Shown here piece after piece: positions 1,087-53,102 of a stretch of DNA of 64,000 bases. The notes below the pieces were generated by a model that made no database searches, was not told the origin of the DNA, and saw only the letters and a program-made list of their open reading frames with translations. This DNA comes from Bidens hawaiensis (Eukaryota; Streptophyta; Magnoliopsida; Asterales; Asteraceae): contig JAIQDT010002056.1 in the NCBI GenBank assembly GCA_021521415.1, positions 310,001 through 374,000 on the forward strand, in the 5' to 3' direction. Both the position numbers and the translations under genes were made by a program. Positions within the stretch are counted from its first letter, which is position 1. The number at the start of each line of letters is the position of its first letter.

Positions 1087-1107
1087 ACCTTTTGTTTTTG
1101 TGTGCAG
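1084..1107 (+). other. Gag-pol junction: stop codon, then pyrimidine-rich stretch ending GTGCAG
   Basis: Gag ends in TAA and pol resumes in the same frame without a nearby ATG before the protease motif. Between them lies CCTTTTGTTTTTGTGTGCAG, which resembles a plant 3' splice site. Family B has TAATAA followed by CTCTTTTGTTTGTGCAG at the same place (minus strand 14671-14651 and 49499-49479). Pol could be made by stop readthrough or from a spliced RNA. The sequence alone does not decide. Confidence 0.55.
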
Positions 1108-4100
1108 GTTGCTCTATATGATCCAAGATTCAACATGTGGATCATAGACTCAGGAGCTTCCAGGCACATGACTGGAAACATGAATCTCCTTTCAAGTGTC
1201 AGACAAATAAAAGGAGGTGTAGTTTCCTTTGCAGGAAATCAAGGAGGTTATATCACGGCCCAAGGAATGGTGTCTAATGGGCGAATTTCGTTTGAGAAAG
1301 TAAATTTCATCAAAGAGTTGGAGAACAACCTGTTGTCGATAAGTCAAATCTGCGACAAAGGTTTCAAAGTTATGTTTGACGACCGAGATTGCCACATCTT
1401 GCCTAAGGATTTCAACTTTCCTGAAGACAAGGTTTTAATGTCAGCTGCACGCCAGAGTGATCTTTACATTCTGGATATGGCTAAGGCAGGGTCAACGTCT
1501 CCAACGGCGACATGTTTCGTGTCCAAGGCATCCGAACGTGATACTGTCTTATGGCATAGACGGATGGGACACATAAATGTCAGGAACATGAACAAGCTTG
1601 TGCACCGCAGACTAGTTGAGGGAGTTAATCTGAGAAGTTTTCGTCTCCCTGATTCATGTGTGAAGTGCAAAGCCGGAAAGCAGATAAAAAGGTCCCACAA
1701 GTCTAAGAGTTTCCACTCAATTGATATTCCGTTGGAACTCCTTCATATGGATCTTTTTGGCCCAATAAGCGTCAAAAGTATCTCTGGGCACTCATACTGT
1801 CTAGTGGTTACTGATGAATATTCTAGATTCTCTTGGGTGTTTTTCTTGAAAGTAAAATCAGAAACGTTTGGGTGTATACAACTGCTGGTTACAACTATTG
1901 AGTCTCAATACAATCTGAAGGTTCGAAGAATGCGGTCAGATAACGGTACAGAATTTAAAAATGCGAATGTTGAAAATTTCTGCAAAGAAAAAGGGATCGT
2001 TCAGGAGTTCAGTGCCCCATATGTTCCACAAATGAACGGGGTTGCTGAAAGGAAAAATCGTACGTTAATCGAGACAGCAAGAACAATGTTAGCCGACTCA
2101 GTGTTACCTGTTACGTTTTGGAGTGAGGCAATTGCCAACGCCTGTTTCACATTAAATCGGGTAGGCATCGTCAAGCGCCACGGCAAGACAAGTTTCGAGC
2201 TTCTTCAACGACGAAGGCCTAACTTAGAGCACCTGGAACCATTCGGGGCTCTTTGCACGTTACTTAAAAGGCAAGTCAATAATAAGTTCGAGGAGAAGAT
2301 CATCAACGGCTATTTTCTGGGTTACAGCATACCTCTCAAAAGGGTCTTCAACAGAACAACAAAATTAGTTGAAGAATGGTACCATGTCGATGTTCAACGC
2401 TACACAGAACCAGCCAAGGGGACAGGAGAAGACTGGTTGTTTGATTATGACAAACTGTTCAAGTCATTCAATCTGTATGAGATTGCTATTCAAATGATGT
2501 ATGAGGCGCAAAATGCACCTCCTGATGAATCTTTGCAATCTTCAACTCATCCTGGTCCGTCATCATCTTCCTCCACAGAGTCTAGCGATCAAGTTCAAGA
2601 ATCTTCCGAATCTGAATCTGAAGATGAATCTCCAGCAGATGATGTACAATCGGCACCAACTCAGGTTACGTCACAACCTTCATCGTCAAATCAAGAAGTG
2701 CCGAATGCAGATCAGCCTCTAACGTCTACTTCAGAGGCACCACAATCCGCTCCAGTTCCTGAGCCGAACTTAACTAACTTGGAACAAAATGTTGTCGTTT
2801 CTGACAATCCGGTTGTTAGGACTGAACGTGATCATCCACAAGACAACATTATAGGGGACTTTCAACAGGGTGTCAAAACTCGGCGACAGCTGAATTTTGG
2901 TCTCTACACAGAAATGATGGAGTCAGGATCAGTTGCTCTTAATGCCCATGAATGCTTCTTAGCACAAGAAGAACCACACAGCACCACCGATGCGCTGAAA
3001 GATTCCAACTGGGTCTCAGCCATGCAAGAGGAATTATTGCAGTTTAAAAGACTTGGTGTGTGGAAGCTGGTGGATCTCCCCAAAGGACAGAAGAAAATTG
3101 GCACTAAGTGGGTACTAAAATGTAAACGTGACGATCGTGGAGTGATTGTTCGCAACAAAGCCCGCCTGGTGGTCCAAGGGTTTAGGCAAATCGAAGGCCT
3201 AGACTACAATGAGGTATATGCTCCGGTTGCTCGTTTGGAGGCAATCCGGATGTTCTTGGCGTATGCATCTTTCAAGAAATTCAAAGTATATCAAATGGAC
3301 GTCAAGAGTGCCTTTTTGTACGGTCACATCGAAGAGACCGTATATGTGGCACAACCTCCAGGTTTTGAAGACCCATATCACAAGGACAAAGCCTATCTGC
3401 TCAACAAGGCTTTGTACGGTCTTCACCAAGCCCCGAGAGCTTGGTATAAAGAACTATCCAAACACCTTCTGAACAACGGGTTTAGAAGGGGAACCATTGA
3501 CTGCACACTATTCTCAAAAGAAAAAGAAGGAGATCTAATTATGGTACAAGTGTACGTGGACGACATCATCTTCGGGTCCACGAATAAAACACTTTGTAAG
3601 GAGTTCGAACAAGTGATGAAAGAAAAATTTGAAATGAGCTCCATGGGTGAGATGAAGTTCTTCTTAGGACTTCAAGTTGATCAAAAAGATTCCGGTATCT
3701 TCATTCACCAGACAAAATACGTCAATGACATCTTGAAACGGTTTGAGATGTTGAGTTCTTCTTCACAGGGAACTCCTTTAGAGGTTAATCACGGGATTAA
3801 TCCTGACGAGAAGGGTGAATTGATCAATCCAACTCACTATAGAGGGATCATCGGATCTCTAATGTACCTGACTGCTTCTCGGCCAGACATAATGTTTGCT
3901 ACGTGTCTCTGTGCACGTTACCAGTCAAAGCCGAAGGTCTCCCATCTGATTGCAGTCAAAAGAATTTTGCGTTATCTGAAGGGTACTCCAGATTGGGGTC
4001 TTTGGTATCCTTATGATGACAACTTCGATCTTCATGCGTACAGTGATTCGGACTATGGTGGTTGTAAACTCGATTACAAATCAACAACAGCAGGATGTCA

Positions 4101-4521
4101 GTTCTTTGGAAGTCGTTTAGTAACGTGGCAATGCAAAAAGCAGACGTCAGTCTCCACTTCAATAGCTGAGGCGGAATATATTGCGGCTGCCAGTTGCTGT
4201 TCTCAAGTTATTTGGATTCAGCAACAAATGCGTGACTACGGTATTGAATGTTCTACTACTCCCATATATATTGATAATTCTGCTGCAATTTCAATTACCA
4301 AAAATCCGGTCCATTTTAGCAAAACGAAGCACATCGAAATTCGATATCACTTCCTTCGTGATTGCTACGAAAAGAAGTTAATCGATGTGATAAAAATCCC
4401 CACTCAGGAACAACGCGCTGATCTCTTCACTAAAGCATTTGATAAACCACGGTTTTTATATTTACTAGAGATCAACGGCGTTAAACGTATATCAGATGAT
4501 GTTCCTGAAGATATCATTTAA
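1102..4521 (+). CDS. pol: Pol polyprotein (protease, integrase, RT, RNase H), element A
   Basis: About 1139 codons without a stop. In order: aspartic protease (IIDSGASRHM, residue ~14); integrase HHCC zinc domain (LWHRRMGH, ~150, to CVKCKAGK, ~186); integrase core with Asp in DLFGP (~218), Asp in RSDNGTEF (~279) and Glu in [10 protein letters not shown] (~316); a Ser/Glu-rich linker (~470-580); RT from ~640 with catalytic YVDDIIF (~818); RNase H with YSDSDYGGC (~980), EAEYIAA (~1023) and a late Asp (~1058). All key residues are present, so the enzyme looks intact. The listed start is GTG; translation probably continues from gag or begins after splicing at 1107. It makes cDNA and integrates it. 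Confidence 0.95.
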   Translation: MQVALYDPRFNMWIIDSGASRHMTGNMNLLSSVRQIKGGVVSFAGNQGGYITAQGMVSNGRISFEKVNFIKELENNLLSISQICDKGFKVMFDDRDCHILPKDFNFPEDKVLMSAARQSDLYILDMAKAGSTSPTATCFVSKASERDTVLWHRRMGHINVRNMNKLVHRRLVEGVNLRSFRLPDSCVKCKAGKQIKRSHKSKSFHSIDIPLELLHMDLFGPISVKSISGHSYCLVVTDEYSRFSWVFFLKVKSETFGCIQLLVTTIESQYNLKVRRMRSDNGTEFKNANVENFCKEKGIVQEFSAPYVPQMNGVAERKNRTLIETARTMLADSVLPVTFWSEAIANACFTLNRVGIVKRHGKTSFELLQRRRPNLEHLEPFGALCTLLKRQVNNKFEEKIINGYFLGYSIPLKRVFNRTTKLVEEWYHVDVQRYTEPAKGTGEDWLFDYDKLFKSFNLYEIAIQMMYEAQNAPPDESLQSSTHPGPSSSSSTESSDQVQESSESESEDESPADDVQSAPTQVTSQPSSSNQEVPNADQPLTSTSEAPQSAPVPEPNLTNLEQNVVVSDNPVVRTERDHPQDNIIGDFQQGVKTRRQLNFGLYTEMMESGSVALNAHECFLAQEEPHSTTDALKDSNWVSAMQEELLQFKRLGVWKLVDLPKGQKKIGTKWVLKCKRDDRGVIVRNKARLVVQGFRQIEGLDYNEVYAPVARLEAIRMFLAYASFKKFKVYQMDVKSAFLYGHIEETVYVAQPPGFEDPYHKDKAYLLNKALYGLHQAPRAWYKELSKHLLNNGFRRGTIDCTLFSKEKEGDLIMVQVYVDDIIFGSTNKTLCKEFEQVMKEKFEMSSMGEMKFFLGLQVDQKDSGIFIHQTKYVNDILKRFEMLSSSSQGTPLEVNHGINPDEKGELINPTHYRGIIGSLMYLTASRPDIMFATCLCARYQSKPKVSHLIAVKRILRYLKGTPDWGLWYPYDDNFDLHAYSDSDYGGCKLDYKSTTAGCQFFGSRLVTWQCKKQTSVSTSIAEAEYIAAASCCSQVIWIQQQMRDYGIECSTTPIYIDNSAAISITKNPVHFSKTKHIEIRYHFLRDCYEKKLIDVIKIPTQEQRADLFTKAFDKPRFLYLLEINGVKRISDDVPEDII

Positions 4522-5443: not shown

Positions 5444-5485
<42 letters not shown>

Positions 5486-5902
5486 ACATTATGAGTGATT
5501 GAAACATTCTAGAGTTAACAATGTCAAGACTTCTCAATCATGGAGTAAGAAAGAAAGAAAACGGGAAGCAGATGAAGACACTTACAACTTTAATCAGACA
5601 CTATGGGTCAAGGTCAATTCGGGGTGACTTGGGGAAAGCCAAATACGCCTTGAGAATAGATAGGAGGCATCATAATCTCTGAGTTGATACCCACTTAAAT
5701 TTTGAGACATAATTGAACCTAACTCGTATCACAGAAACGATGAAAACCATTTTAAGTTATTTACATGCTCACAACCTGTTTCTTTATGTCATAATACAGC
5801 TAAACACGGATCTGTGTGACAGTCACGTAATTAGTATGATTCCTGTTCGGATCTTTCTCACAAAAAGAATATTCATTATGTCTTGTTTAACTTCGTTTAT
5901 TC

Positions 5903-5951
<49 letters not shown>

Positions 5952-6056: not shown

Positions 6057-6101
<45 letters not shown>

Positions 6102-6662: not shown

Positions 6663-6848
6663 ATTCGATCGAATAGGTTGCTATTCGATCGAATAACTCG
6701 ATCGAAGGAACTGATTCGATCGAATCAGTGGTTGAGGATTGCAAACAGTTGCGAAGAGACTCATTCGACCGAATAAGAATCTCATTCGATCGAATGGTCC
6801 AAACGAACAAGTCCGTTCGATCGAATAAGTCCAAAAACAGTATAAATA
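6663..6848 (+). promoter_or_regulatory. Putative internal promoter of the third gene: TTCGATCGAA array plus TATA box
   Basis: Several copies of the palindrome ATTCGATCGAAT or close variants occur from 6663 on (near 6683, 6711, 6783, 6812), then TATAAATA at 6841-6848. The last palindrome is about 20 nt before the TATA box. The 3' LTR has the same arrangement (10793-10887) and shares the exact 18-nt palindrome CTGATTCGATCGAATCAG (6711-6728 and 10793-10810). Surrounding sequence differs, so this is not simply an inserted LTR. More copies follow in the leader intron. Promoter activity is inferred. Confidence 0.55.
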
Positions 6849-6976
6849 CTCAAACTTATTCGATCGGTCAGTTAATTTCGAAATATATTACGGATTTTTG
6901 CTCTCAAATCTATTTTCCTCAAACCCTCTTTTTGATCCGATCATATTATTCGATTTTTCACGTAGATCACGAAAAT

Positions 6977-7341
6977 GTAAGTTTTACATGTTTTTAACCG
7001 TGTTTTGATCGAGTTCTTGATCGTTTAAGTTTTCCGGGTTCGGGTGTTCTTCATTTCTGGGTTTCTGTTTGAATGAGTCGAACCAGTCCATTCGATCGAA
7101 CGAGTTTCTTATTCGGTCGAATGTGACTTATTCGACCACTAGTTCGATCGAATCAGAAGTCAACGATAAGATCTATCTCATTCGATTGTCTGTGATCGAA
7201 CCAGATCTCATTCGATCGAATGAATAGCTCAACCGATCGAATGTGTTACTCGTTCGATCGAACTAGTCCAGAAAATTTGAAAAGTTTAAACGCATTCAGT
7301 CGTTTCAATATCTGTTCGTTCTAACACGTTTAAGTTTACAG
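6977..7341 (+). other. Putative leader intron of the third gene
   Basis: A consensus plant donor, AAAAT|GTAAGT, lies at 6977, about 130 nt after the TATA box and behind a CT-rich stretch typical of plant 5' leaders. An acceptor, TTTAAGTTTACAG|ATTCA, ends at 7341, five bases before the ATG at 7347. The length would be 365 nt. The intron carries further TTCGATCGAA motifs. In family B a CAG acceptor also lies two bases before the homologous ATG. Confidence 0.55.
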
Positions 7342-7346
7342 ATTCA

Positions 7347-8924
7347 ATGGCTGAAGTTGCAGTAGTGGTTGCTCAGTACAAAACGTCCATCAAGCACAAC
7401 ATCGTGGCTTTTCTAGACGAAAAGTCGAGCCACGGGAAAGACTTTGCAACGGTGATAAAGTTTCTGAAGAGGTCGAGGATCTCTGGACCCATCTCTAGGA
7501 TTATTGAGCCTATCATGTCTATCCAACAAGAGTTTTGGAGGAATGCCACGCACGACAAAACAGTCGTGCCGTCGGTTATTCGCTCCACCGTTAGAGGGCA
7601 AGCCATCGTTATATCTGCCCAGGTCATTAGAGAAGTCTGCGGATTTGAAGATGATGAATCAGACCCGACCTCCCTACATCCTGCTGCAACAAGAGGATGT
7701 TTCGCACGTATGAAGTATGACGGCGACCTCAATGCCGGTCTGCTTCATAAGGCCAACTTGTGCCCCGAGTTCAAATATTTGGCACACGTTGTGATGCACT
7801 GCTTGGGCCCTCAACGAACCAGCTTTGACAAGCTGAGGGAAAGCATGCAGTTCACTGTAGCTGCTTTGGTGATGAACCGACCATACAACTTCTCTCAGAT
7901 GACTTTCGGTCATATGGTCGAGAACATCACGTTGAAGCAAGGGAAAAGTGAGAAGTTTCTACAGTTCCCACGGTTCGTGCAAATGATTGTCGATACTCAA
8001 GCACCAGGGTTACTGAAAGAAAACGAAGGTGATGTGGTGAAACTGGACCACATGAAAAATGAGACTCTCAACCGTCTCAAATCTTACAAGGAACGTCCAA
8101 CCAGGCCACCAATCAAAAGATGCTTCGGGCATTTGGTGAATCCGTCTTACAGGGCCCCTCCTAAAAGGAAATGGAGAAATGATACCAGTGACTCAGACGT
8201 CGAAAACTTACCTTTGCAGGAATCAAGCGACGACTCTGACACTGAGGAGGTGGCGGTCCCTGAAGATACAAGGACCGAAGCTGAAAAGGAGGCTGATTCG
8301 TTTCTAAATGAAGAAGAGTTGGAAACTGGTGAGGAAGTCAGAGCCGTGGAAAATCCGGCCGACATAGATGTAGGAGAAGAAAGGCCTGCAAAGAGGCAAA
8401 AGAAGAAGGTTACTCGGAAGTATCGAAGCTTATTTCCCGATCAACCGCGTCCCTCAATGTTACCATCCGTCGGGACTTCTGCTGCTCCTCCTGCTCAACC
8501 AGCACAGCCACCAACACCGCAGTCAGCTCAACAACCTATTCCTCAAGCTCAACCTGAAATGGCCATACCTCAAAAGGTTGCATCCGAACTTGCTGATTTG
8601 CACAAGGCGATGATGAAGATGTTACTGTTCAAGGCAGAGCAAGAAGAACAGAATCGGCTCAGAGATGAGCAGATTGCTAAACTTCAAGCTGAGAACGAAA
8701 TGCTCAGGCTTGAAAATAGTCAGTTAAATGCTACTGTCGCTGAACAGGGATCTTCGATCAATGAACAAGGTTCTTTGATCACCGAGCTGAGAGAGTCAAA
8801 TCTACGCCTTGAAGCAAGAGTGACTGAGCTGAAGGGTGATGTTCTTCGTCTGGAAGGTCCAACCAATGTCGATGTGGACACAGACGAACTGGACTCTTCT
8901 GATGATGGAGGTGAAGGTAGTTAA
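7347..8924 (+). CDS. Third ('envelope-like') gene, coding exon 1, element A
   Basis: The open frame of 525 codons ends in TAA at 8922-8924, but the coding exon probably ends at 8916 (donor AAG|GTAGTT). Residues ~1-245 form a conserved N-terminal domain containing FPRFVQM. It is homologous to the start of the 934-residue protein at 41195-43999. An acidic stretch (~280-335), a basic patch KRQKKKVTRK (~350-360, nuclear-localisation-like), a Pro/Gln linker and a heptad-rich coiled coil (~412-505) follow. No signal peptide or membrane segment is seen. The protein is of a type I recall beside copia pol in Asteraceae repeats. Its function is unknown. Confidence 0.75.
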   Translation: MAEVAVVVAQYKTSIKHNIVAFLDEKSSHGKDFATVIKFLKRSRISGPISRIIEPIMSIQQEFWRNATHDKTVVPSVIRSTVRGQAIVISAQVIREVCGFEDDESDPTSLHPAATRGCFARMKYDGDLNAGLLHKANLCPEFKYLAHVVMHCLGPQRTSFDKLRESMQFTVAALVMNRPYNFSQMTFGHMVENITLKQGKSEKFLQFPRFVQMIVDTQAPGLLKENEGDVVKLDHMKNETLNRLKSYKERPTRPPIKRCFGHLVNPSYRAPPKRKWRNDTSDSDVENLPLQESSDDSDTEEVAVPEDTRTEAEKEADSFLNEEELETGEEVRAVENPADIDVGEERPAKRQKKKVTRKYRSLFPDQPRPSMLPSVGTSAAPPAQPAQPPTPQSAQQPIPQAQPEMAIPQKVASELADLHKAMMKMLLFKAEQEEQNRLRDEQIAKLQAENEMLRLENSQLNATVAEQGSSINEQGSLITELRESNLRLEARVTELKGDVLRLEGPTNVDVDTDELDSSDDGGEGS

Positions 8925-9088
8925 GAGTATTTTGAGTGAATGTAGTAAGGACTTAAATGTTAAATCTTTTCAATTAATGATTTGTTTGTAAACCTAGTTT
9001 CATATGTAATGATATTGTATTTAATGTTTATGATATTGCATATGTTTACTTAAATTTGTTGTTACTTTGTGTTTGTGTAATCAAACAG
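8917..9088 (+). other. Intron in the third gene (172 nt)
   Basis: Donor AAG|GTAGTT at 8917, acceptor TAATCAAACAG|GT ending at 9088, with an AT- and U-rich interior and a T-rich stretch before the acceptor. Exon 1 ends one base into a Gly codon and exon 2 supplies the other two, so the join is in frame. The joined product would be 938 residues. The unsplit homologue in family B is 934 residues and matches both exons. Confidence 0.75.
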
Positions 9089-10335
9089 GTGATGCTGATC
9101 CGTTTAATGTCCAACCGCTGCAATCAAAAACAGCAGCGGAATATTTCACGTTTTTACTGGACAATCCAGATGAGCAGCAATTCTTCGCAAGTGGAGACTT
9201 GGAAGAAGGTGAAATTTCTCACAATTTCACAGAAGAAGAACTGGAACATATGTTTGAGCTATACAATGAAGAAACAGGCAAGTATCTGGCTTTGCCTTCA
9301 ACAGAACAAACATCTTCTTCGGCTGCTACACCTGACTCAACATCATCCACGGCCGCTGATCCCTCTCAATTCGATGAAGTCGAAATGGAAGACTTGACGC
9401 AGGAAGAATATCCAGAGTACTACACGTCTCAAACTGAAGATCTTCCTAACTCGGCAAGCTTCTTTCAAAATGTAACAGAGGAGGAAATACAGAAGAAGGC
9501 TGACGAAAGGTCAAACACAATGAAACAGCCTTCTGATGCAGATCAAGCCGATTTCGTTGAGAAAACTGAAGAGTGCAAGAAAGCTTTCAACGCTATTCTT
9601 GAGAAGATAAGGTCCAGACGACAAGCAAAGCCGACCATTCCTCACACAATGTCCTATAAGATGAAGGGTCGTAGAACTTCAGGTGAAATAATTGCTTGGG
9701 CGTGTCTGAAGGATCTTAATTGCATTGCTATCAAGAGAGAAAAAGAGGTTGAGTACTTTCAACGTATCACTGACTTGAAGACTCTTCCTACTTTTGATCT
9801 AAACCGTCTTAACTATCTTGATATGCTTTATGCAAGTTCATCTCCATTTGCAACGTATTATCAGAGTGTATTGCGAATGGAATACAGCTCAAAATGGAAG
9901 ATGATCACTCCACAAAGGCCAAAGAGATATACAAGTAAAAGGGAGATCGATCCGATCACCAACAGGCCAAAGATTGTTTTGAAGTACATGCCACCACTCA
10001 CGATGAAGAAGATTCCTCTAAGAAAGATGAAGCAGGACTTCTACAAAGCGTTCAGGCATTGGTACTATGACGGAAGACTGCATGAAGCAGTCATCGTGCT
10101 CAACGACAATGGAAATTGGAGCACAATTCGTATCTTTGATCCTATGTGGCTCACAAACTTGTCACGGGAGGACGTCTACACGCTGTACAAGACAGAGATT
10201 CTCTACGCCCCCGAAGACATGGAGCAAGCTTTAACGTATAGAAATGTCATTAGGATCTGCTTTGCCTATGACATACATGCAGGATCAAATTGGAAAGAGC
10301 AACAGAAGAAGTATGCACAAGAGACTGAAGCTTAA
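9089..10335 (+). CDS. Third gene, coding exon 2, element A
   Basis: The frame is open from upstream of the acceptor to TAA at 10333-10335, about 415 residues. An acidic, Ser/Thr-rich first part (to about nt 9570) is followed by a conserved C-terminal domain. That domain has KTLPTFDLNRL, VLKYMPPLTMKKIPLRKMK and RIFDPMWLTNLS. It matches the family B C-terminus, which has RSLNTLPECEVKDLARLGL, VMKYKPVRHLKEVPMKV and RVYDPMHLVNLS. The stretch has no good ATG of its own at the domain boundary, which favours expression by splicing from exon 1. There is no membrane segment. The enzymatic or structural role is unknown. Confidence 0.75.
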
Positions 10336-10611: not shown

Positions 10612-10681
10612 AAGGGGGAGTTACGATCGAGCAAGAGAACTCGATTGATTGTAAGTAAATAGAACTGGCTCCAAGGGGGAG
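10612..10681 (+). other. Two polypurine tracts before the 3' LTR
   Basis: AAGGGGGAG occurs at 10612-10620 and again at 10673-10681, the second 2 nt before the LTR. Polypurine tracts prime plus-strand DNA synthesis. Multiple tracts are described for Sireviruses. Confidence 0.85.
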
Positions 10682-10683
10682 TT

Positions 10684-11131
10684 TGTTAGGACATGAAATG
10701 TCATGTGTATGTCCCCAGTTCTATCAGGATGGTTCGATATGAAGATAACGATCGTGAAACTAAGTTAACGGACACGAAAATGTCAAAAGAAACTGATTCG
10801 ATCGAATCAGTGACTGATTCGATCGAACCAGGTCTCGTTCGATCGAATGAGAGACTCATTCGATCGAACCAGTTTTCGATATATAAACGAAACTTAGGAA
10901 ATTTCACAAGAGCACACATTCTACACACAGTCACGAACCACCACTCTGCTGAAATACTCTCTGCCCGTTCTTCACGTGTCGGTCCTTTCCTCCGTCCCTA
11001 GGTGTCAAACCGTCTTAGGAATCGTTACCGCGCGTTGTTGATCACCACCGAATCGCCGTGTTAGAGGATTCCGCACTCTAACACGTTGCCCCGTGAATCG
11101 TTGGGAAACCGTGTCCCGCACCGGTCCGACA
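10684..11131 (+). repeat. 3' LTR of element A (448 bp)
   Basis: It starts TGTTAGGAC directly after the polypurine tract and ends GGTCCGACA, giving near-inverted TG...CA termini. Beyond 11131 the sequence abruptly becomes family B spacer in reverse orientation. The 5' LTR is outside the window, so LTR age cannot be measured. Confidence 0.85.
10793..10887 (+). promoter_or_regulatory. LTR promoter: TTCGATCGAA palindrome array and TATA box
   Basis: Four TTCGATCGAA motifs in about 80 nt, the first inside CTGATTCGATCGAATCAG (10793-10810), are followed by TATATAAA at 10880-10887. This is the expected core promoter of the LTR. Confidence 0.7.
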
Positions 11132-40652: not shown

Positions 40653-41114
40653 TGTAGGTTCCCGGACGGATCTTACACGGGATATCGCTATCTACGTAGG
40701 TGCGGAATCCCTGCGTAGGTAGTTACGAGCGTAGAATACGTAAAACAATCACACGCGATACAAACGAACACGTTATATATTATAACTTGAAATACGTCTG
40801 TTACAGACTCTATCTCTCGTCTATCGACTTGCTGAATTACACGTGATTAACCAAAACTCTAACTCTTAAACCGTAAACCCGTAGGCTATATAAATACACG
40901 AAAACTTCGCCTCAGGCGAAGTTGTCAGTAACTTCGCTCGTTGAACAAGTTCGCCTAGGCGAACTTGTCGACAACTTCGCTTGTTCAACAAGTTCGCCTA
41001 AGCGAACTTGTTGACAACTTCGCTTACATACATAATCATAAACTTAAACATAATTACATTACAGACTCGATTACAAACGCTAGACTATGAACTACTGACA
41101 TTTATGTACCAACA
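40653..41114 (-). repeat. 3' LTR of element B2, with promoter palindromes
   Basis: Three adjacent palindromes lie just upstream (in sense) of the TATA box: 40986-41013, 40945-40968 (core GTTCGCCTAGGCGAAC, perfect over 24 bp) and 40903-40923. The TATA box in sense is TTTATATAG (40886-40894). Termini are TGTTGGTAC...GAACCTACA. Confidence 0.9.
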
Positions 41115-41126
41115 GACTCCCCCTTG
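41115..41126 (-). other. Polypurine tract of element B2
   Basis: In sense CCAAGGGGGAGTC ends directly before the LTR's TGTTGG. Related AGGGGGAG sequences occur inside the third gene at 42216-42228 and 42351-42363. Confidence 0.9.
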
Positions 41127-41194
41127 GCAGTAGCTTCATGTCTTGATCTTCAAAGCTTGTGTCTTGTAATCTCTCGTCTTCTCTCTTCATCTCT

Positions 41195-43999
41195 TCAAGC
41201 ATGCACTCCCTGTCTAACACATACAGAAACCAACTTCTGGTACTTCTTAGCTTCCTCTTTCCAAGCAGGAATGTAGAAAATCTTCTTAGCATGTAGTACC
41301 TGCAAGTCAGCTTGAGACAGATTGACTAAGTGCATAGGATCATACACTCTCATGATCTCTTGCTCATCTTCATCCTCCATGACCGCTTCAGCAGTTTCAC
41401 AATCCACGTACCACCACTTCAAGTCTTTCAAGACGTTCTTGGGCATCACCTTCATCGGCACTTCTTTTAAATGACGGACTGGTTTATACTTCATAACCAT
41501 CCATGGTTTGCTGTCTGCCCTCATCCCTCTATCTTTGTCTTCTACTAACTTCCCTTTCTGAGGCTTCAGAAGTTCAAACTTTTTATCTTTAATGGCCTCC
41601 TTCCAAACAATTTTCCCAATTACCGCCGCCATGTTATCATCACTTCTGTTTATCAGCCCCAGTCTTGCTAAGTCTTTCACCTCACACTCCGGTAAGGTAT
41701 TCAGGGATCTTAACATCTTCTTGAAGTACTGAATGCCGTCGTAACGTTTGATCACAAATAGTTTCAACTCTTCATCGTACGACCAGCATATGATTCCCTT
41801 CTTTGATTCTGCATATCCTTTTATATTATACGACTTTTTGAACATCGTCGGTACTGCTGGCTTCTTCGTCTTTACAAACCACTGAGCGCAACCTTCCTTC
41901 CAGTTTGGCTGATCTTCCCACTCAGTGTTGTCAACCACAGCATCTTCACATATAGTCGACTGTTCAACCACAGGGATCTCATGCTCTACATTTTCTTCAA
42001 CAATCTCTCCTTCTTCTATCACATTCTCAACCACAATTTCTGCACCAATCTTTTCAATCTCATCGATTGGCAGAACATCATCTTCATTTATCAACTCATC
42101 ATCCTCTAACATATCGTCTATCTCTTTCAGCGCATCAATCATATCATCAACAATCTCAACATCTTCAACCACATCCACATCATCACCAACAGCAACCACA
42201 TCATCACCAGATGCAGACTCCCCCTCAGCTGTGGAAGCCCCAAGAGCTATAGTAGTTCTTGGCAACTCACCACCTGCATCTTTCGATGCATTGGGATCAT
42301 CGTCTTGGTCTTCTCTTCTTTTGGTCCTCAGCTCATCTCCTCTACAGCTCATCTCCCCCTGAGATGCCAAGAACACCTTCAAGGCATCTATAACTTTCCC
42401 GTGCTCAGCCAGGAGGGATGCCTGCAGTTGATTTGCTTCCACTAGGCTTTGAATAGTCTTGGACTGCTCAGCTACAATCCGCTCTAGTGAAGCTATTCGT
42501 TCCGAGTCTGAAGTGGGCATGACCGCAGGTGGTACCGTACCCGATAACCCTGCAGTAGTGGTGACCGTAGACTCGACAAATCGTGCTACTACCACCGATG
42601 GAGTAAGCGTTTGAGGTGGTAGAGACACAATTGCTGGAGTCGACGTCTGGACGGCCGTGATCAATGGAATGTCAGCCGACAATGTAGCCGCTACGGGAAC
42701 AACCGTAGCGCTTGTACTCGATACCTGCACAGAGGTAGGAACAATGGACATACCAGACAGGGCAGGTGGAGCAAAACGTACCAACCGAGAAGTCTCTCCA
42801 GCTCCTACACCCATACCTGTCCTTTCCCTTCGTGAACGCTTTCTCACCAGCTGCACAGCTTCTTCTTCATCATCTTCCTCGTCGTCGTCGTCAACAGTTC
42901 TCTTTTGTTTACCAACCGTTCTCTCATGCGTTACCATCATCCTTCTAGCCTCTTCCATCACATCATCAAAATCAGCTTGTGGACCCGAGACTTGAATATT
43001 CTCTTGAGGATCAACTCGGTCCATATCAAACATTCCTTGGCCTCCCAACATGGCATCAAGGTCAATCTCTGCAGCTGACACAGCAGCAGATACAGCAGGC
43101 GCAGCTGATACAGCCTGGGGTGCTGCCGCCTGTTGTGGTCGTGGGTCTCTGAACTCGTCCCCTGCCGCAGGCACATACTCCGGGTTTATAAGGTACCCAA
43201 AGAGCGGAGTATGCCTGGGACGCAGCTCAGGCTTGCTTCGTGCGCTGGAAGTGCGACACTGTGCAAAGATACGTTTTGTCACACTTTCCACGTATCGAAT
43301 AGGGCGTCGTTGAGGCAGCGTCGGAGCCACATGATTGAAAATCATCTGTAGGAATCGTGGATACATTGTAAACCGCTCACGCGCCACAGCCCTTCGTTGC
43401 CTATCGATCTCGTAAAAGATCATCTGGCTGAAAGAATATCTTTTATTATAAGTCAACGCAGTCATAGCAGACTGCATTGTCGCACCCATACCATCAGTGC
43501 CTGCCTTCCGTCCTGACATACATACGATCATGACGTGCATAAGGAAGCGCCACTGATCTAAAGGGAATCCCTTCCTCCGTTGTGTGTCCCCTAAGGGACC
43601 AGAATACCCCATCCTGAGGAACGCCCCATCACGGAATGGCGCAACAAACTCCGTTGGATCATCCCTCGTCTCTTCACCAAACCGCAACGCCACCCGTATT
43701 TGTTCAGAAGAAAACTGAACAACTTGACCGTTTACGGTGGCTCGCATAACCGGGGGCTCAACCCGGCAATCGTACTCTACCGTCTGCCAAAAGTCTTCAA
43801 TATTCGGTAGGGAAATAGGCAGGGTAGTTGTTATTGCGTGATATATCCGTGAGCGCAGGAGAAAAGTAATTATCTCCCTGTAGTCCTCCACGCCCTTTGC
43901 ATCTGGGTCAAGTGTTATGAACTGGTTATGAGCTGGGAAGAATTGTCTGTGGTCATCACCGTCATCACCTGCACCTCCTGCACTTCCAACAGCAGCCAT
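41195..43999 (-). CDS. Third ('envelope-like') gene of family B, 934 residues, intact
   Basis: One frame from ATG at 43997-43999 to the stop at 41195. Residues ~30-250 are the conserved N-terminal domain (FLLRSRIYHAI, QWRFLMHVMIVCMSG, YPRFLQMIFNHVAP), matching exon 1 of element A. An acidic run then a basic patch RKRSRRER (~365-392), a Thr/Val/Pro-rich stretch, a coiled coil (~495-540), a very acidic segment (~595-690) and the conserved C-terminal domain (~700-930) follow. No signal peptide or convincing membrane helix is seen, so an envelope role is unsupported. The function is unknown. The ATG is preceded by GTTTAGTGCAG|AT, a likely splice acceptor. Confidence 0.85.
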   Translation of the reverse strand: MAAVGSAGGAGDDGDDHRQFFPAHNQFITLDPDAKGVEDYREIITFLLRSRIYHAITTTLPISLPNIEDFWQTVEYDCRVEPPVMRATVNGQVVQFSSEQIRVALRFGEETRDDPTEFVAPFRDGAFLRMGYSGPLGDTQRRKGFPLDQWRFLMHVMIVCMSGRKAGTDGMGATMQSAMTALTYNKRYSFSQMIFYEIDRQRRAVARERFTMYPRFLQMIFNHVAPTLPQRRPIRYVESVTKRIFAQCRTSSARSKPELRPRHTPLFGYLINPEYVPAAGDEFRDPRPQQAAAPQAVSAAPAVSAAVSAAEIDLDAMLGGQGMFDMDRVDPQENIQVSGPQADFDDVMEEARRMMVTHERTVGKQKRTVDDDDEEDDEEEAVQLVRKRSRRERTGMGVGAGETSRLVRFAPPALSGMSIVPTSVQVSSTSATVVPVAATLSADIPLITAVQTSTPAIVSLPPQTLTPSVVVARFVESTVTTTAGLSGTVPPAVMPTSDSERIASLERIVAEQSKTIQSLVEANQLQASLLAEHGKVIDALKVFLASQGEMSCRGDELRTKRREDQDDDPNASKDAGGELPRTTIALGASTAEGESASGDDVVAVGDDVDVVEDVEIVDDMIDALKEIDDMLEDDELINEDDVLPIDEIEKIGAEIVVENVIEEGEIVEENVEHEIPVVEQSTICEDAVVDNTEWEDQPNWKEGCAQWFVKTKKPAVPTMFKKSYNIKGYAESKKGIICWSYDEELKLFVIKRYDGIQYFKKMLRSLNTLPECEVKDLARLGLINRSDDNMAAVIGKIVWKEAIKDKKFELLKPQKGKLVEDKDRGMRADSKPWMVMKYKPVRHLKEVPMKVMPKNVLKDLKWWYVDCETAEAVMEDEDEQEIMRVYDPMHLVNLSQADLQVLHAKKIFYIPAWKEEAKKYQKLVSVCVRQGVHA

Positions 44000-44001
44000 A
44001 T

Positions 44002-44586
44002 CTGCACTAAACGAACCAAGTTAGATAAACGTTTTAGTTGTACACAAGTTCGCTTGATTACCAGGAGCGAAGTTGTGATCAAACCTGTATAGGCGAAGTT
44101 AAAGGTGAGGCGAAGTTGGGAACAACTTCACTTCATCTTTAAGTTCGTCTAATTAATTTTAAGTAATAGGGTCTGGGCGAAGTTAGTGATAACTTCGCCT
44201 CTTCACAACATTGCCTCAGGCGAAGATAAGGGTTAGGCGAAATTAAGTCTCAGGCGAAGTTGCGGATAACTTCGCCTCAGGCGAAATTAAGCCCCAGGCG
44301 AAGTTGCGGATAACTTCGCCTAAACCCTAACTTCGCCTGCATCAGAATAGGCGACTGTTAGGATTCTAACAGCCGGAATCCGATGATTCGGCAAAGTTTG
44401 ACGATCCAGGAGACTCTAACACATGATATTACGGATGGTTAGATGAAAAGATCGTCCATGAACACGTAATACAAGTTTGTAAATCTCGGTTTTGAAAGGT
44501 CACCGGACCGAGGTCACTTAACCGTTCAAAACGACCTATGAAAAGCATCACTGTCTTTGGATATACGGTTAATCGATAACACACAC
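44002..44586 (-). other. Putative leader intron of the B2 third gene
   Basis: The acceptor TTTAGTGCAG ends at 44002, two bases before the ATG. A candidate donor, TTCAAG|GTGTGT, lies at 44586, about 145 nt after the putative TATA box. Length 585 nt. The donor is weaker than that of element A. GGCGAAGTT motifs fill 44040-44345. Confidence 0.4.
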
Positions 44587-44730
44587 CTTGAATCTATTGA
44601 ACGAAACTGAGAAAAAGGATCGAAATCGGAAACGAATCAAGTTCGCCGGATAATAGTTAAGTTCGCCAGGTTTCTCGGAAACAGCTTCGCTGATATTTTG
44701 AAATAATGAATATTTTACTGTTTGAAATCC

Positions 44731-44825
44731 TTATATAGGGTCAGAGTTGGTCAGGCGAAGTTACGGATAACTTCGCCTAGGCGAAGTTATCCACAAGTTC
44801 GCCTGATTCAACAACTTCGCCTATA
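44731..44825 (-). promoter_or_regulatory. Putative internal promoter of the B2 third gene
   Basis: In sense, GGCGAAGTT motifs including a perfect 28-bp palindrome (44765-44792, core AACTTCGCCTAGGCGAAGTT) are followed about 17 nt later by TATATAA (44737-44731). The LTR of the same element has palindromes of the same kind in front of its TATA box. The arrangement parallels 6663-6848 of element A. Confidence 0.5.
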
Positions 44826-44959
44826 TTTTCATAACCAAACCTTATAATTTTGAACAATTTGAATTAACTCTTTAAAACTTTCCTTTAAGAAATAAATGAC
44901 ATGATCAATTCTAAGTAACCAGTTAAAAAGTCATAAAACTATCTAAGTACAAAAAAGTA

Positions 44960-45376
44960 AAAATTTAAAGTATAAGGGATCAAATTTCAGTCTCGGTAGG
45001 GACTGCTACGTTTTAGAAAAGATCCGAACAGGAATCATACTAACTACGTGACTGTCACATAGATCCGTGTTTAGCTGTATTATGACATATAGAGACAGGT
45101 TGTAAGCAGGTATAACTTAAAGTGGTTTTCATCGTTTCTGTGATACGAGTTAGGTTCGATTAAGCCTCAAAATTTAAGTGGGCAACAACTCAGAAATATT
45201 GATGCCTCCTATCTATCCTCAAAGCGTATTTGGCTTTCCCCAAGTCACCCCGAATTGACTTCGACCCATAGTGTCTGATTAAACATGTATGTACTCTTCT
45301 TTTGGATCCCGTTCTTCTTCTTACTCTAAGATAGAGAAGTCTTGATTTTATGATCACTAATATGTTACAATAACTT

Positions 45377-45428
<52 letters not shown>

Positions 45429-46140
45429 TGATTAACATAGACTTCAAAGTAGAAATTAACTGCAAGTCCCGAATCTGGATCACTGCAGTATCTTGAAACG
45501 CTATCCTCACGGGAATCAGAACACACATGGGCTCGTGTATGACTGGGTAATCGCTTTTCTGCCTATCATTCGAAAAGATATATATGAAGACACGCAAAAC
45601 TCTTAAGGAGTTTCCACGTAAAATCAAGTAAAATTAGTTTGTATCACGTCTACTTTTACGTACCATAAAAAGTTACCATGACATACAATGATTGTCCTAA
45701 AGTCTTTTAAGTCTAATAACTTCACTAGTTAAGCACGCAAAGTTAGTATATCTATCATTTTCCAAGGTTGGATCAATTTTCCGTTTAACATAGCTAACGA
45801 ACTTCTTACGAAGTAACAGACTTGAAAAGTAATTTCATTTCCCAAAAAAATTTTGACTTCAATCGCCCCGATCACGTCAAAGTCTTCAGGTAAACGGCAA
45901 TCCTGAAGATCCAATGGATCAACTGGACCGACCACATACAAGTATGTGTCCTTCTAACTAAGTATGACCGACTAATTTTCAGCGACAGAAAGAAAACACA
46001 TCATAACCGCCCCCGGTCACTTTCAGTCATCTGGTTAATGGCGACCCTCATTCTCTACAAGTAGAAACGAGGACCAAAACATATCCGAGGATATGTCCAT
46101 CAAACTGAGGTAACCGACTAATTTTAAGCAATAGTGACGT
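44960..46140 (-). other. Conserved post-pol spacer of B2 with stem-loop module
   Basis: Homologous to element A 4790-5900. Unit 1 pairs ACATATCC with GGATATGT (46079-46096). Unit 2 pairs CACATAC with GTATGTG (45933-45948) and CTTCAGG with CCTGAAG (45884-45908). An AT/T-rich microsatellite lies at 45379-45427. No convincing ORF. B1 keeps only unit 1 (stem at 11249-11266). Confidence 0.65.
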
Positions 46141-46173
46141 TTTTTTTTTTTTAAATAAACACAAAGAACATGG

Positions 46174-49100
46174 TTACTCGGGATTGATCATCCCGTTCAG
46201 CTCAATTAGGTTTTGAAATCTGGATTTATCAAACGCTTTTGTAAATAAATCAGCGAAATTTTCTAGCGTATCGACCTTTTCGACCTTAATCAGTTTCTTC
46301 TCAGCACAATCCCGTATGAAATGATGACGAATGTCAATATGTTTAGTTTTACTATGTTTCACGGGATTGTTAATTACTGAGATGGCAGCAGTGTTATCAA
46401 TAAAAATAGGAGTGAGTAAGAAATTCAGACCATAGTCGTGCAATTGTTGCTGAATCCACAAAACCTGAGAGCAGCAGTTGGATGCTGCCATATATTCAGC
46501 TTCGCACGTAGAGATTGCGACTGATGTCTGTTTCTTGCACTGCCAGGAAACTAATCTTCCACCGAGAAACTGACATCCTCCTGTTGTCGACTTCCGACTC
46601 TGATTGCACCCTCCATAATCAGAATCTGTATAAGCAACCAGTTCCACGTCTCCTCCCTTCGGGTACCACAACCCTAGCTTCGGCTTGCCTTTGAGATACC
46701 GCAGAATCCTCTACACACCCTTCATGTGAGATTCCTTTGGGTTTGCCTGAAAACGAGCACAAAGACAAACAACAAACATTATATCAGGCCTAGAAGCAGT
46801 CAAATACATCAAAGAACCTATTATAGCCCGATACTGAGTTGGGTCCACATCTGCGTCACCGTCTATTTCAGCTCCCAACTTGTGGTTGACGCAAATTGGA
46901 GTGGCAAATGGAGAACAGTCCTCCATCTTGAAGCGCTTGAGGACATCATGAACATATTTTATTTGATGAATGAGCATCCCATCCTTCTTTTGATCAACCT
47001 GCAATCCTAAAAAGAACGTTAGTTCACCCATAGCACTCATCTCAAATCTTTTCTTCATGACGGCCTCAAAATCCTGACACATGGAGACTCTTGATGCAGC
47101 AAATATGATGTCATCCACGTAGACTTGAACTAGCAGGAAGTCACTTCCATCTCTCTTCACAAACAGTGTGCTGTCAATCAAACCCCTTTCAAAACCATTC
47201 TCTAGCAAGTAGTCCGATAACGTTGAATACCAGGCACGAGGTGCCTGATGTAATCCATACAGCGCCTTGCTCAACTTGTACACGCGATCAGGAAAGTCTG
47301 GGTCAGGAAAACCCGGAGGTTGCTCAACATACACAACCTCATCAACTTTCCCATTGAGGAACGCACTCTTCACGTCCAACTGAAACACTTTCATTTTCTT
47401 AAAAGCAGCAAACGCCAAAAACAATCTTATCGCTTCCAACCTGGCCACCGGAGCGAACACTTCATTATAATCTATCCCCTCTTGCTGATTAAAACATTTA
47501 ACGACCAGCCTCGCCTTGTTTCTTATAATAATCCCCTTTTCATCTCTCTTGCACTTAAACACCCATTTTGTGCCTATCGCATGCACATTCCTTGGTTTTT
47601 CAACCAAAGTCCAAACTTCCATCTTCTTAAATTGAGCCAACTCTTCTTGCATGGCCTCGACCCACGAGCTGTCCTTAAGAGCCATTTGATAATTTTTCGG
47701 TTCAATCTGGCTAATAAAGCATGAGTACAAACATTCGTTCATTATACCCGTTTCCTTAATGCTTGCATAAACACAGGTGTGCTCATTCAAGCTACTTCTG
47801 GTTTGTACACCGGAGGACACATCACCTATAACATTCTCCAAAGGGTGTTCTTTGTGAATTCTCGTGGTCGGAACAGCACCGACATGCAAATTATCTTCTA
47901 AATTAGAAGAGAGCTCATCAATGGTTGTTTCTGGCTGAGAGTGAAATGGATTGATAAACTCTTCTTCAGGAGAGACAGCAGGGGAACCGATAGAATTTGA
48001 TGAGGAAGGTTGACAATCATCAAATAGCTGTCTATGTGCCAAATTTTCCTCCTCATCTAGAATCATCTTCGTAGCAACACGTTCTTCTTCTTCTGTACAA
48101 AACAAATCAGGTATGTTAAAAGACTTGAAGAGCCTATCATAGTCGAAAATCCCAGGAGGTCCGATGCTCGGTCTTGGCGATCTGTAACTCGTAATGTCGG
48201 TGTTACATACCACCTCAACCTTGCCGTTCGTTGTATTAAAGACACGCCTGTTGGGAGTCCCAACTTCATAGCCGACTAAGATTCCTTCATCGGCTGCTTC
48301 ACCAAACTTTGAATGTGCCTTTAAAATTGAACACGGGGACCCGAAAGCTTCAAGTCCACACAAATTGGGCTTTCTCCCATGCATAAGCTCGTAGCATGTT
48401 TTATTAAGTCTTTTTACCGTTAAAACTCTATTTAGTATATAGCAAGCTGTAGAAACAGCTTCAGCCCAGAACACCACTGGAAGCTTCGAATCAGCCAGCA
48501 TAGTTCTGCTCCTTCAATTAAAGTTCTATTCTTCCTTTCAGCCACTCTATTCTGTTGCGAAGTATACGGAGCGCTGAATTGGTGTTCAATCCCTCTTGAC
48601 AGACAGAAGATCTCCATTTCAAAATTTTTAAACTCGGAACCATTGTCACTTCTGATGAACTTCACTCGTTTATCCATAATGTTCTCAACTTTGGTAATCA
48701 GATTCTTCACCATTTGAGCCGTTTCGTCCTTTGATTTCAGGAAGTATACCCACGAGTATCGTGAGTAGTCATCAGTGATCACCAAGCAATAAGTTGTACC
48801 ACCTAGACTTCTTACATTCACAGGACCGAAGAGATCCATGTGAAGCAGCTCTAGTGTACTGGCAATTGAGTTTACTTTCTTGGTGAGATGGGACTTCTTG
48901 TGCTGCTTTCCCTTTTTGCACGCAAGACATTTGTCTTCAAAATTGAAACTTTTTAAGGGAACACCCAACACAAGCCCATGTCTGACAATATGGTTCATCT
49001 TCCGAAGATGAATGTGCCCCATTCTCCTGTGCCACAGTTCAGATTCCGATTCGCTTGCTTTCGTCAAAAGGCATGATTCTTCCGTTGACATTTCAGTTGA

Positions 49101-49487
49101 ACTTAAATCCATCATATACGTATTTCGATCACGTGGAGCCTTCATTACTATCCACTCCTCTGGTATTTAAAAACCAGGCTTCAACACAATCGCATCAGTC
49201 TTCGTGAAGTGTACGTTATAATCTTTATCACAAATCTGCGACACACTCAGCAGATTGTGCTTCAGTTCTTCAACAAAGTTCACATTTTCTAACGTCATCT
49301 TCCCGTTAGTTACCGTACCCCTTCCTGTTATTTTGCCTCCACTCTCACCGGCAAAACTGACTCTTGCTCCTTGAACAGGTTTTAAATCTTGTAACAAATC
49401 CTTGTTACCAGTCATGTGCCGGGAACAGCCGCTGTCCACAACCCAAAGATTATTGGAAGCCCTGTTCAACTGTTCCTGCACAAACAA
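46174..49487 (-). pseudogene. pol: Pol of element B2, three lesions
   Basis: Almost identical to the open pol of B1, which shows each break. TAA at 49167-49169 replaces a Gln codon after the protease. One G is missing near 48508, after the integrase motif [10 protein letters not shown], shifting the frame. TAG at 46711-46713 replaces a Lys codon before RNase H. Protease, integrase, RT (YVDDIIF) and RNase H motifs are all still readable. It cannot make a full polyprotein. Confidence 0.95.
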
Positions 49488-49496
49488 AAGAGATTA

Positions 49497-52128: not shown

Positions 52129-52179
52129 CTTCTCGAAAACAAGAAAAACCCGGAAAAAGACAAAAATTCTTCCAAACAG

Positions 52180-52638
52180 TACTATAGGCGAAGTTAAGGA
52201 TAACTTCGCTTAAGTGTTAACTTCGCTGGAAAATCCTTAAATTCGCGTGACTTGGCGAAGTTGAGAATAACTTCGCTTAAGGTAAGCGAACTTAGGAGGT
52301 AAGCGCAGTTGAGGTTAACTTCGCTTAGGCGAACTTATGAGGTAGGCGAAGTTGTGGTGTTAACTTCGCTCAACCTTATATCTTCGCCGAAACCCTACTT
52401 CCAGCGTCGGCAACTTCGCCTGAAGAACAACAACTTCGCCCGAAGAACACTGAAAATATTCAGATCTGTTTTCGACGATTTAGCAGTTTCCGGTCGGTGT
52501 GACGGCTTGAATATGACGGTATAAGGTGAGTATAACACAATATCAACGAAAACGCGTCCCGCGAATAGGTCAAACGAGACGTTTTCTACACCCGCGTGAA
52601 ATCCCGAACCACACAATCGAGCCAAAGCTCTGATACCA
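52180..52638 (-). promoter_or_regulatory. B2 leader: GGCGAAGTT array and primer-binding site
   Basis: Initiator Met-tRNA primer site TGGTATCAGAGC (52638-52627 in sense) lies two bases after the LTR. AACTTCGC/GCGAAGTT motifs are scattered over 52185-52440, before the gag ATG. Confidence 0.75.
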
Positions 52639-52640
52639 AT

Positions 52641-53102
52641 TGTAGGTTCCCGGATGGATCTTACACGGGATATCGCTATCTACGTAGGTGCGGAATCCCT
52701 GCGTAGGTAGTTACTAGCGTAGAATACGTAAAACAATCACACGCGATACAAACGAACACGTTATATATTATAACTTGAAACACGTCTATTACAGACTCTA
52801 TCTCTCGTCTATCGACTTGCTGAATTACACGTGATTAACCAAAACTCTAACTCTTAAACCGTAAACCCGTAGGCTATATAAATACACGACAACTTCGCCT
52901 CAGGCGAAGTTGTCAGTAACTTCGCTCGTTGAACAAGTTCGCCTAGGCGAACTTGTCGACAACTTCGCTTGTTCAACAAGTTCGCCTAAGCGAACTTGTT
53001 GACAACTTCGCTTACATACATAATCATAAACTTAAACATAATTACATTACAGACTCGATTACAAACGCTAGACTATGAACTACTGACATTTATGTACCAA
53101 CA
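52641..53102 (-). repeat. 5' LTR of element B2
   Basis: 462 bp, same termini and palindrome/TATA arrangement as the 3' LTR (TTTATATAG at about 52874-52882). Five differences from the 3' LTR were counted. Confidence 0.95.

What the first reader, a model, noticed from the sequence alone, without database searches (positions are those of the whole stretch)
6663..10335. A split, self-promoted third gene inside a Sirevirus
Seen: palindrome array, TATAAATA (6841), CT-rich leader, consensus donor GTAAGT (6977), acceptor (7341) just before ATG 7347, a long exon, a second GT-AG intron, and a second long exon. This is a complete plant gene layout lying sense-oriented inside a retrotransposon. Sense introns should be lost if the genomic RNA is spliced before reverse transcription, so their presence suggests either a separate transcript from an internal promoter or regulated splicing. 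Foamy viruses have an internal promoter and Ogre elements have a gag-pol intron; this combination I do not know from plant elements. Capture of a host gene is an alternative.
Basis: partly seen in the sequence, partly recalled or inferred. Interest (0 to 1): 0.88.

Follow-up and report, generated by a model that had tools for sequence, protein, structure and literature searches.

The report
Retrotransposon gene with its own promoter
A plant retrotransposon carries, behind its usual genes, a complete extra gene that appears to have its own promoter and introns, and that promoter has the same element-specific DNA signal as the main promoter, which suggests, but does not prove, that the element switches itself on in two steps.

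Summary
Element 1 is a Sirevirus (Ty1/copia): pol at 1102-4521, octamer AGGGGGAG exactly 10 bp before a 448-bp 3' LTR (10684-11131). Its third gene has a palindrome array, TATA (6841), leader exon, 365-nt leader intron ending 5 nt before ATG 7347, and two coding exons around a T-rich 172-nt intron. All 13 exact TTCGATCGAA copies in the window lie in two places: around this internal promoter (9) and just upstream of the LTR TATA (4). A second, diverged Sirevirus (B, 40653-53102, minus strand) repeats the plan with a different palindrome and no detectable promoter similarity; its gene 3 is a homologous, uninterrupted 934-aa ORF, which supports element 1's two exons belonging together. Palindromes upstream of Sirevirus "env" genes and the internal-promoter hypothesis are already published (PMC2829016); the TATA, leader intron and coding intron are the addition here. 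Element 1's protein shows no membrane helix by hydropathy and has basic clusters; two near-identical Helianthus relatives carry a BED zinc finger. Best reading: a separately transcribed, spliced accessory gene, probably nuclear; self-activation through the palindromes is plausible, untested. Host-gene capture is not supported. No transcript data were available.

The parts
1102..4521 (+). pol of element 1 (integrase core, copia-type reverse transcriptase)
   Evidence: Pfam RVT_2 1.2e-77, rve 9e-16
6664..6825 (+). palindrome array upstream of the internal TATA: 5 exact TTCGATCGAA and 2 with one mismatch
   Evidence: expected 0.07 exact copies per window
6841..6848 (+). internal TATA box TATAAATA, 15 nt after the last palindrome
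   Evidence: compare 11 nt in the LTR of the same element, 10 and 17 nt in element B (LTR, internal)
6871..6976 (+). putative leader exon (start site assumed about 30 nt after TATA, a recalled rule)
   Evidence: inference from TATA and donor
6977..7341 (+). putative leader intron, GT-AG, 365 nt, ending 5 nt before the ATG; contains a second palindrome array at 7091-7262 (4 exact copies, 1 with one and 2 with two mismatches)
7347..8916 (+). coding exon 1 of gene 3 (PF20167 Transposase_32 match just under cut-off at aa 57-211, basic cluster KRQKKK, heptad-like segment)
   Evidence: similar to B gene 3, Smallanthus and Helianthus proteins
8917..9088 (+). putative intron 2, GT-AG, 172 nt, absent from element B
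   Evidence: flanking ORFs match one ORF in B
9089..10335 (+). coding exon 2 of gene 3 (first in-frame ATG only at codon 55; about 240 C-terminal aa conserved in B)
10613..10681 (+). two AGGGGGAG polypurine octamers (10613 and 10674); the second begins 10 bp before the LTR
   Evidence: Sirevirus signature of PMC2829016
10684..11131 (+). 3' LTR of element 1; palindromes at 10797-10868 (4 exact, spaced 21/20/21), TATA at 10880
40653..53102 (-). element B, second Sirevirus family, LTRs 98.9% identical, 5-bp target duplication ACTAT
41195..43999 (-). gene 3 of element B, uninterrupted 934-aa ORF
44002..44586 (-). putative leader intron of B gene 3, ending 2 nt before the ATG; contains 11 half-sites GCGAASTT
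44737..44820 (-). internal promoter of B: 5 half-sites then TATATA at 44737
52880..53011 (-). 5' LTR promoter of B: 9 half-sites then TATATA at 52880
52188..52439 (-). 12 further half-sites in the gag leader of B, after the primer-binding site

Best explanation
This is the 3' extra gene of an env-class Sirevirus, organised as its own transcription unit. Shown by sequence: an array of the element's own palindrome, a TATA box, a leader exon, a palindrome-filled leader intron ending next to the ATG, and a coding region in two exons followed by the element's polypurine tracts and 3' LTR; the same plan, with a different palindrome and without the coding intron, in a second Sirevirus. Inferred: RNA polymerase II starts about 30 nt after the internal TATA, the leader intron and intron 2 are spliced out, and the RNA ends in the 3' LTR, giving a subgenomic mRNA; genomic RNA started in the 5' LTR stays unspliced, which is why the introns survive reverse transcription. 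Inferred, less certain: the product is a nuclear accessory protein and not an envelope protein.
For: All 13 exact TTCGATCGAA copies are at the internal promoter/leader intron or just upstream of the LTR TATA; of 70 half-sites of the A2/B motif in the window, 67 are in A2/B LTRs, gag leaders, B's internal promoter or its leader. Last palindrome to TATA: 11 and 15 nt (element 1), 10 and 17 nt (B). LTR and internal promoter match within an element through the arrays, but element 1 and B show no LTR or promoter similarity at E<=0.01, so the plan is conserved while the sequence is not. In both families the best donor and the best acceptor downstream of it define a leader intron ending 5 or 2 nt before the ATG. 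Both exons of gene 3 match one ORF in B (79/254 and 69/242 identities). Intron 2 has intron-like composition and stops in all frames. Best 19-residue hydropathy 1.08 (exon 1) and 0.99 (exon 2): no membrane helix suggested in element 1. Helianthus relatives P0005/P0006 carry a BED zinc finger (1.6e-07, 2.8e-07) ahead of the shared domain (P0005: 37% over 279 aa).
Against: No RNA data. Splice weights are crude and recalled; donor 8917 and acceptor 7342 score only moderately, and the leader pair of element 1 is matched in about 1% of shuffles. Intron 2 is seen in one element only. Basic clusters and heptads are simple pattern scans. B's gene-3 product has one borderline hydrophobic segment (1.63 at residue 432). 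Only 2 of 5 database relatives carry the BED finger, these two are 94% identical and so count as one case, and neither window protein has it. None of the 5 relatives matches exon 2. Database names are automatic annotation.
Confidence: 0.7

Rival explanations
1. Gene 3 is expressed from the 5' LTR by splicing, as proposed for env of Athila and BAGY2; a leader donor is joined to acceptor 7342 and the internal TATA is incidental.
For: Precedent cited in PMC2829016. A strong acceptor-like site also lies at the gag-pol boundary in both families (scores 11.0 at 1108, 9.5 at 14647), so longer-range splicing in these elements is conceivable.
Against: Array plus TATA at similar spacing in two families with unrelated promoter sequence, and a donor some 106-121 nt downstream of each assumed internal start, are not needed on this model.
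Confidence: 0.2
2. The palindromes bind a host transcription factor (for example a stress factor); gene 3 plays no part in reading them. (Compatible with the best explanation; it competes with the novel case.)
For: PMC2829016 reports that palindromes of other Sireviruses mainly resemble stress-related factor sites in the PLACE database. Host factors commonly drive plant LTRs (recalled).
Against: Weak: a host has many factors.
Confidence: 0.5
3. Gene 3 is a true envelope gene.
For: Position after pol; historical naming of such Sirevirus genes.
Against: No membrane helix or hydrophobic N-terminus in element 1 by hydropathy, with basic clusters, acidic and heptad-like segments; the BED finger of two relatives points to DNA. 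B has one borderline segment.
Confidence: 0.07
4. A host gene was captured with its promoter and introns.
For: Plant-gene-like layout. Two Helianthus relatives are annotated as transcription-factor genes.
Against: A homologous gene sits at the same place in a second Sirevirus at 28-31% identity, and its promoter carries the element's own LTR palindrome, not a host promoter. PF20167 is described as a plant-transposon family.
Confidence: 0.04

Closest known systems
Env-containing Sireviruses with palindromic repeated motifs (Osr10, HOPIE, Inga, Barbara and others; PMC2829016)
   Same: Palindromes upstream of the LTR TATA and upstream of the env-like gene; AGGGGGAG octamer 10 bp before the 3' LTR; 5' junction CA/ATTGG-TATCAGAGC (elements B and A2).
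   Different: Here an internal TATA, a leader intron holding palindromes, a coding intron and palindromes in the gag leader are described; motifs lack the CGG-CCG core; the LTRs are short (448 and 462 bp).
SIRE1 of soybean
   Same: Sirevirus with a gene after pol (as described in PMC2829016).
   Different: SIRE1 expresses it by stop-codon suppression from pol (as cited there); here 2.8 kb without an ORF of 100 aa or more lie between pol and the ATG.
Foamy viruses (internal promoter and Tas; PMC3798896)
   Same: Two promoters with shared response elements near TATA boxes; an accessory gene behind the internal promoter.
   Different: No relationship by descent is claimed; no DNA binding shown for gene 3.
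VANDAL DNA transposons and VANC anti-silencing proteins (PMC5735166)
   Same: Family-specific repeated motifs upstream of genes and in introns of the accessory gene; accessory protein more variable than the core enzyme; variable intron organisation.
   Different: DNA transposon; VANC has DUF1985 and DUF287 domains, which were not among the Pfam matches of gene 3; binding not tested.
Ogre elements
   Same: Sense intron in an LTR retrotransposon (PMC6317226, passage).
   Different: [quoted passage not shown] here introns are in an extra gene.

Membership tests
Sirevirus (SIRE lineage, Ty1/copia) | copia-type pol order with integrase before reverse transcriptase | tested here: met
   rve at aa 210-309, RVT_2 at 653-893
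Sirevirus (SIRE lineage, Ty1/copia) | AGGGGGAG starting 10 bp upstream of the 3' LTR | tested here: met
   Element 1: 10674 with LTR at 10684; B: 41124 with LTR at 41114 (rule)
Sirevirus (SIRE lineage, Ty1/copia) | Further copies of the octamer in the linker | tested here: inconclusive
   Met in element 1 (4592, 10613). Not met in B: its two other copies (42225, 42360) lie inside the gene-3 ORF
Sirevirus (SIRE lineage, Ty1/copia) | 5' LTR junction CA/ATTGG-TATCAGAGC | tested here: met
   Met in B (52640) and A2 (17808); element 1's 5' end is outside the window, so not testable for it
Sirevirus (SIRE lineage, Ty1/copia) | Position in a reverse-transcriptase tree with known SIRE elements | not tested
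Sirevirus palindromic repeated motif (RM) as in PMC2829016 | Palindromes clustered upstream of LTR TATA and upstream of the env-like gene | tested here: met
Sirevirus palindromic repeated motif (RM) as in PMC2829016 | CGG-CCG core | tested here: not met
   Motifs are TTCGATCGAA and inverted GCGAASTT; Tnd-1 in that paper also lacks the core
Retroviral-type envelope | Membrane-spanning helix | tested here: not met
   Element 1 best 19-residue hydropathy 1.08 and 0.99; B 1.63, borderline. No dedicated predictor was available
Foamy-virus-like transactivator circuit | Accessory protein binds elements in both promoters | not testable with these tools
   Only the shared motif is shown
VANC anti-silencing protein | DUF1985/DUF287 domains | tested here: not met
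   Not among Pfam matches of P0001-P0008; HMMER's filters drop most very weak matches

The most novel reading that the evidence does not exclude
These Sireviruses run a two-promoter self-activating circuit: the gene-3 protein recognises its own family's palindrome, first at its own internal promoter (in element 1 more sites than the LTR, with a palindrome-filled intron) and then at the LTR, either as an activator (like foamy-virus Tas) or as a sequence-specific anti-silencer (like VANC). The motif and its reader would co-evolve, so each family would activate only itself.
Probability: 0.25. Interest if true: 0.85.

Novelty: new variant of a known kind. Interest (0 to 1): 0.57.

Why it matters
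PMC2829016 supports an internal promoter for the Sirevirus env-like gene but says it could not conclusively identify one; PMC3414828 lists stop-codon suppression and an internal promoter as expression modes and calls the function unproven; PMC6317226 calls the function of such ORFs speculative (passages seen). A concrete promoter, start region and junctions make the hypothesis directly testable. If gene 3 reads its own family's palindrome, it would be a retrotransposon counterpart of VANC and a plant parallel to foamy-virus transactivation, and would recast these 'env' genes as regulators.

Tried and rejected
Protein database (3 of 3 searches used): gene-3 exon 1 as a whole found nothing among the 8000 candidates scored; restricted to residues 17-280 it found 4 proteins among 1148 candidates; P0003 found 1 among 8000 candidates. 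Exon 2 was not searched by itself. Viral contigs with B gene 3 and element 1 pol: no relatives (2 of 8 scans). Rfam on the whole window: no match at gathering thresholds. Solved structures: alignment A4 gave 8 sequences up to E 1, best 0.067 (a chemokine), taken as chance; A3 gave none.

A gag-pol fusion intron in element 1 using its best donor (732) was rejected because it is out of frame with pol; the in-frame donor 661 would cut the zinc knuckle (frame worked out by hand for the product). A generally structured RNA in the linker: of 9 overlapping windows, columns 71-230 had z -4.1 with 2 compensatory pairs, three had z -1.8 to -2.5, and the other five lay between -0.9 and +0.2 with no compensatory pair; so structure is suggested only towards the 5' end.

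Helical phasing: 15 spacings of 18 palindromes are near multiples of 10-10.5 bp (mean cosine 0.59 at 10.5; p 5e-5 against uniform spacings of 12-50; 0 of 3000 when the period is free). The 18 include copies with up to 2 mismatches chosen after looking, while two-mismatch matches at 6859, 7004, 7315 and 10622 were left out; spacings 13, 18, 48 and 49 do not fit; duplication of a 21-bp unit gives the same pattern. Kept as a hint only.

Paper searches: 10 of 10 used. No title or abstract start in the listings named a plant Copia element with a mapped internal promoter or an anti-silencing protein; several listings were capped (for example 20 of 38, 10 of 261, 10 of 73), and the library lacks most subscription papers.

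Full report
What was checked. The window opens inside gag of a plus-strand Ty1/copia element (element 1): gag ends at 1086, pol is 1102-4521 (RVT_2 1.2e-77, integrase core 9e-16), a non-coding linker follows, then gene 3, polypurine octamers and a 448-bp 3' LTR (10684-11131). The octamer AGGGGGAG begins exactly 10 bp before the LTR, the Sirevirus rule of PMC2829016 (section read). Element 1 adjoins, and by the junction is nested in, a minus-strand Sirevirus, A2 (11132-18277), which is 97% identical over 7161 bp to part of element B. B (40653-53102, minus) has both LTRs (98.9% identical, 5 mismatches in 463 aligned), a 5-bp duplication ACTAT, the Sirevirus 5' junction and terminal octamer, and serves as a second, diverged family: pol protein is 53% identical between element 1 and A2 (602/1130).

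Promoter anatomy. TTCGATCGAA occurs 13 times exactly in 64 kb, 0.07 expected: five upstream of the internal TATA (6664-6825), four in the leader intron (7091-7262), four upstream of the LTR TATA (10797-10868). Copies with one mismatch number four in the window, three of them in the first two arrays and one at 59870. In A2/B the repeated unit is GCGAASTT, often as inverted pairs; of 70 half-sites in the window 67 lie in LTRs (9, 9 and 7), gag leaders (12 and 12), B's internal promoter (5), its leader exon (2) and leader intron (11); three lie elsewhere. The last palindrome is 11 and 15 nt (element 1, LTR and internal) and 10 and 17 nt (B) from TATA. Within each element the LTR and the internal promoter match through these arrays, but between elements neither LTRs nor internal promoters match at E<=0.01. 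The layout is conserved while the letters are not, and within each family the same motif is found at all sites.

Gene structure. In element 1 the best donor in 6841-7400 is 6977 and the best acceptor after it is 7342, 5 nt before the ATG; in B the best donor is 44586 and the best acceptor has first exon base 44001, 2 nt before the ATG (crude recalled weights). Such a pair arises in 23 of 2000 and 1 of 2000 dinucleotide shuffles. Intron 2 (8917-9088) is T-rich, CpG-free, with stops in all frames. The ORF before it matches the N-terminal part and the ORF after it the C-terminal part of B's single 934-aa ORF (79/254 and 69/242 identities), which is the main reason to accept that the two exons form one gene. 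B lacks this intron; gain and loss cannot be told apart.

What the protein looks like. Exon 1 has a PF20167 match just under the cut-off (44.9 bits against 45). Five database relatives were found, from Smallanthus (1) and Helianthus (4), both Asteraceae. Two Helianthus proteins (793 and 788 aa, 94% identical to each other) have a BED zinc finger at 33-77 ahead of the shared domain; the other three do not, and none of the five matches exon 2. Hydropathy suggests no membrane helix in element 1 and one borderline segment in B; basic clusters and heptad-like segments are present. Gene 3 diverges more (28-31%) than pol (53%). Together this fits a fast-evolving nuclear accessory protein better than an envelope, but localisation and DNA binding are inferred.

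Mechanism. Steps shown by sequence: shared family-specific palindromes at both promoters, TATA boxes at similar spacing, a leader intron layout in two families, two coding exons in one. Steps inferred: transcription start near 6870, splicing, 3' end in the LTR, unspliced genomic RNA, nuclear action. Foamy viruses offer a working parallel: Tas binds with high affinity at the internal promoter, then most likely at the LTR (PMC3798896, passages). VANDAL transposons offer a plant parallel: VANC binds short motifs that differ between families, repeated upstream of genes and within introns, and VANC varies more than the transposase and has diverse intron organisation (PMC5735166, abstract and one section; PMC10398659, passages). 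Both are analogies; VANC's named domains were not found in gene 3.

What is known already. PMC2829016 (passages and four sections) reports palindromes in 13 Sireviruses, upstream of env in nine, and supports an internal promoter (a hypothesis it credits to Peterson-Burch and Voytas 2002) without conclusively identifying one. PMC3414828 (passages) lists stop-codon suppression and an internal promoter as expression modes and calls the function unproven. PMC6317226 (passages) finds a 3' extra ORF in 74% of SIRE elements, in 19 dissimilar groups. [quoted passage not shown] What this window adds is the internal TATA, leader intron, coding intron, palindromes in intron and gag leader, and two families showing the same plan with different motifs. 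That makes it a new variant of a known kind; I did not see these features described in the papers I opened, which is not proof that they are unpublished.

Noticed in passing
4769-5856 (+) versus 45018-46140 (-): Non-coding linker between pol and gene 3 is 82.7% identical over 1134 nt between element 1 and B, higher than pol DNA (66%), although promoters and LTRs show no similarity. Blocks near 90% alternate with 50-column islands of 24% and 48% identity, which argues for constraint more than recent exchange. Fold signal mainly at its 5' end.
   Followed up: partly
1084-1108 (+); 14647-14671 (-): In both families gag ends in an in-frame stop followed by exactly 21 nt of pyrimidine-rich sequence ending TGTGCAG|G, the top acceptor-like score in each stretch scanned (11.0 and 9.5). 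It may allow a spliced Gag-Pol, as in Ogre; in-frame donors exist but not at matching places.
   Followed up: partly
P0005, P0006 (Helianthus): Gene-3 relatives fused to an N-terminal BED zinc finger, annotated as transcription-factor genes; 94% identical, so one case; possibly a transposon-derived regulator or a fusion.
   Followed up: partly
11131-11132: Element 1 appears nested in A2: its LTR ends at 11131 and A2 resumes at 11132; the rest of A2 should lie left of the window.
   Followed up: partly
39269-40652, 53103-53907, 57680-59797: B is inserted in an LTR-like sequence whose second copy lies at 57680-59797 (93-94% identical); a primer-site match at 53908 suggests another Sirevirus-type element.
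   Followed up: no
31046-31832 and 35867-36236: Probable further LTR pair (86% identical over 381 nt) with primer-site variant at 31834 and AGGGGGAG at 35867; only about 4 kb internal.
   Followed up: no
5449-5483, 5905-5948, 6062-6099: Three long A runs in the element 1 linker, and an exact 38-nt duplication at 6158 and 6297.
   Followed up: no
16445-17344 (-); 46711-52128 (-): A2 gag has an in-frame stop and B gag-pol is split into several ORFs, while B gene 3 is uninterrupted.
   Followed up: no
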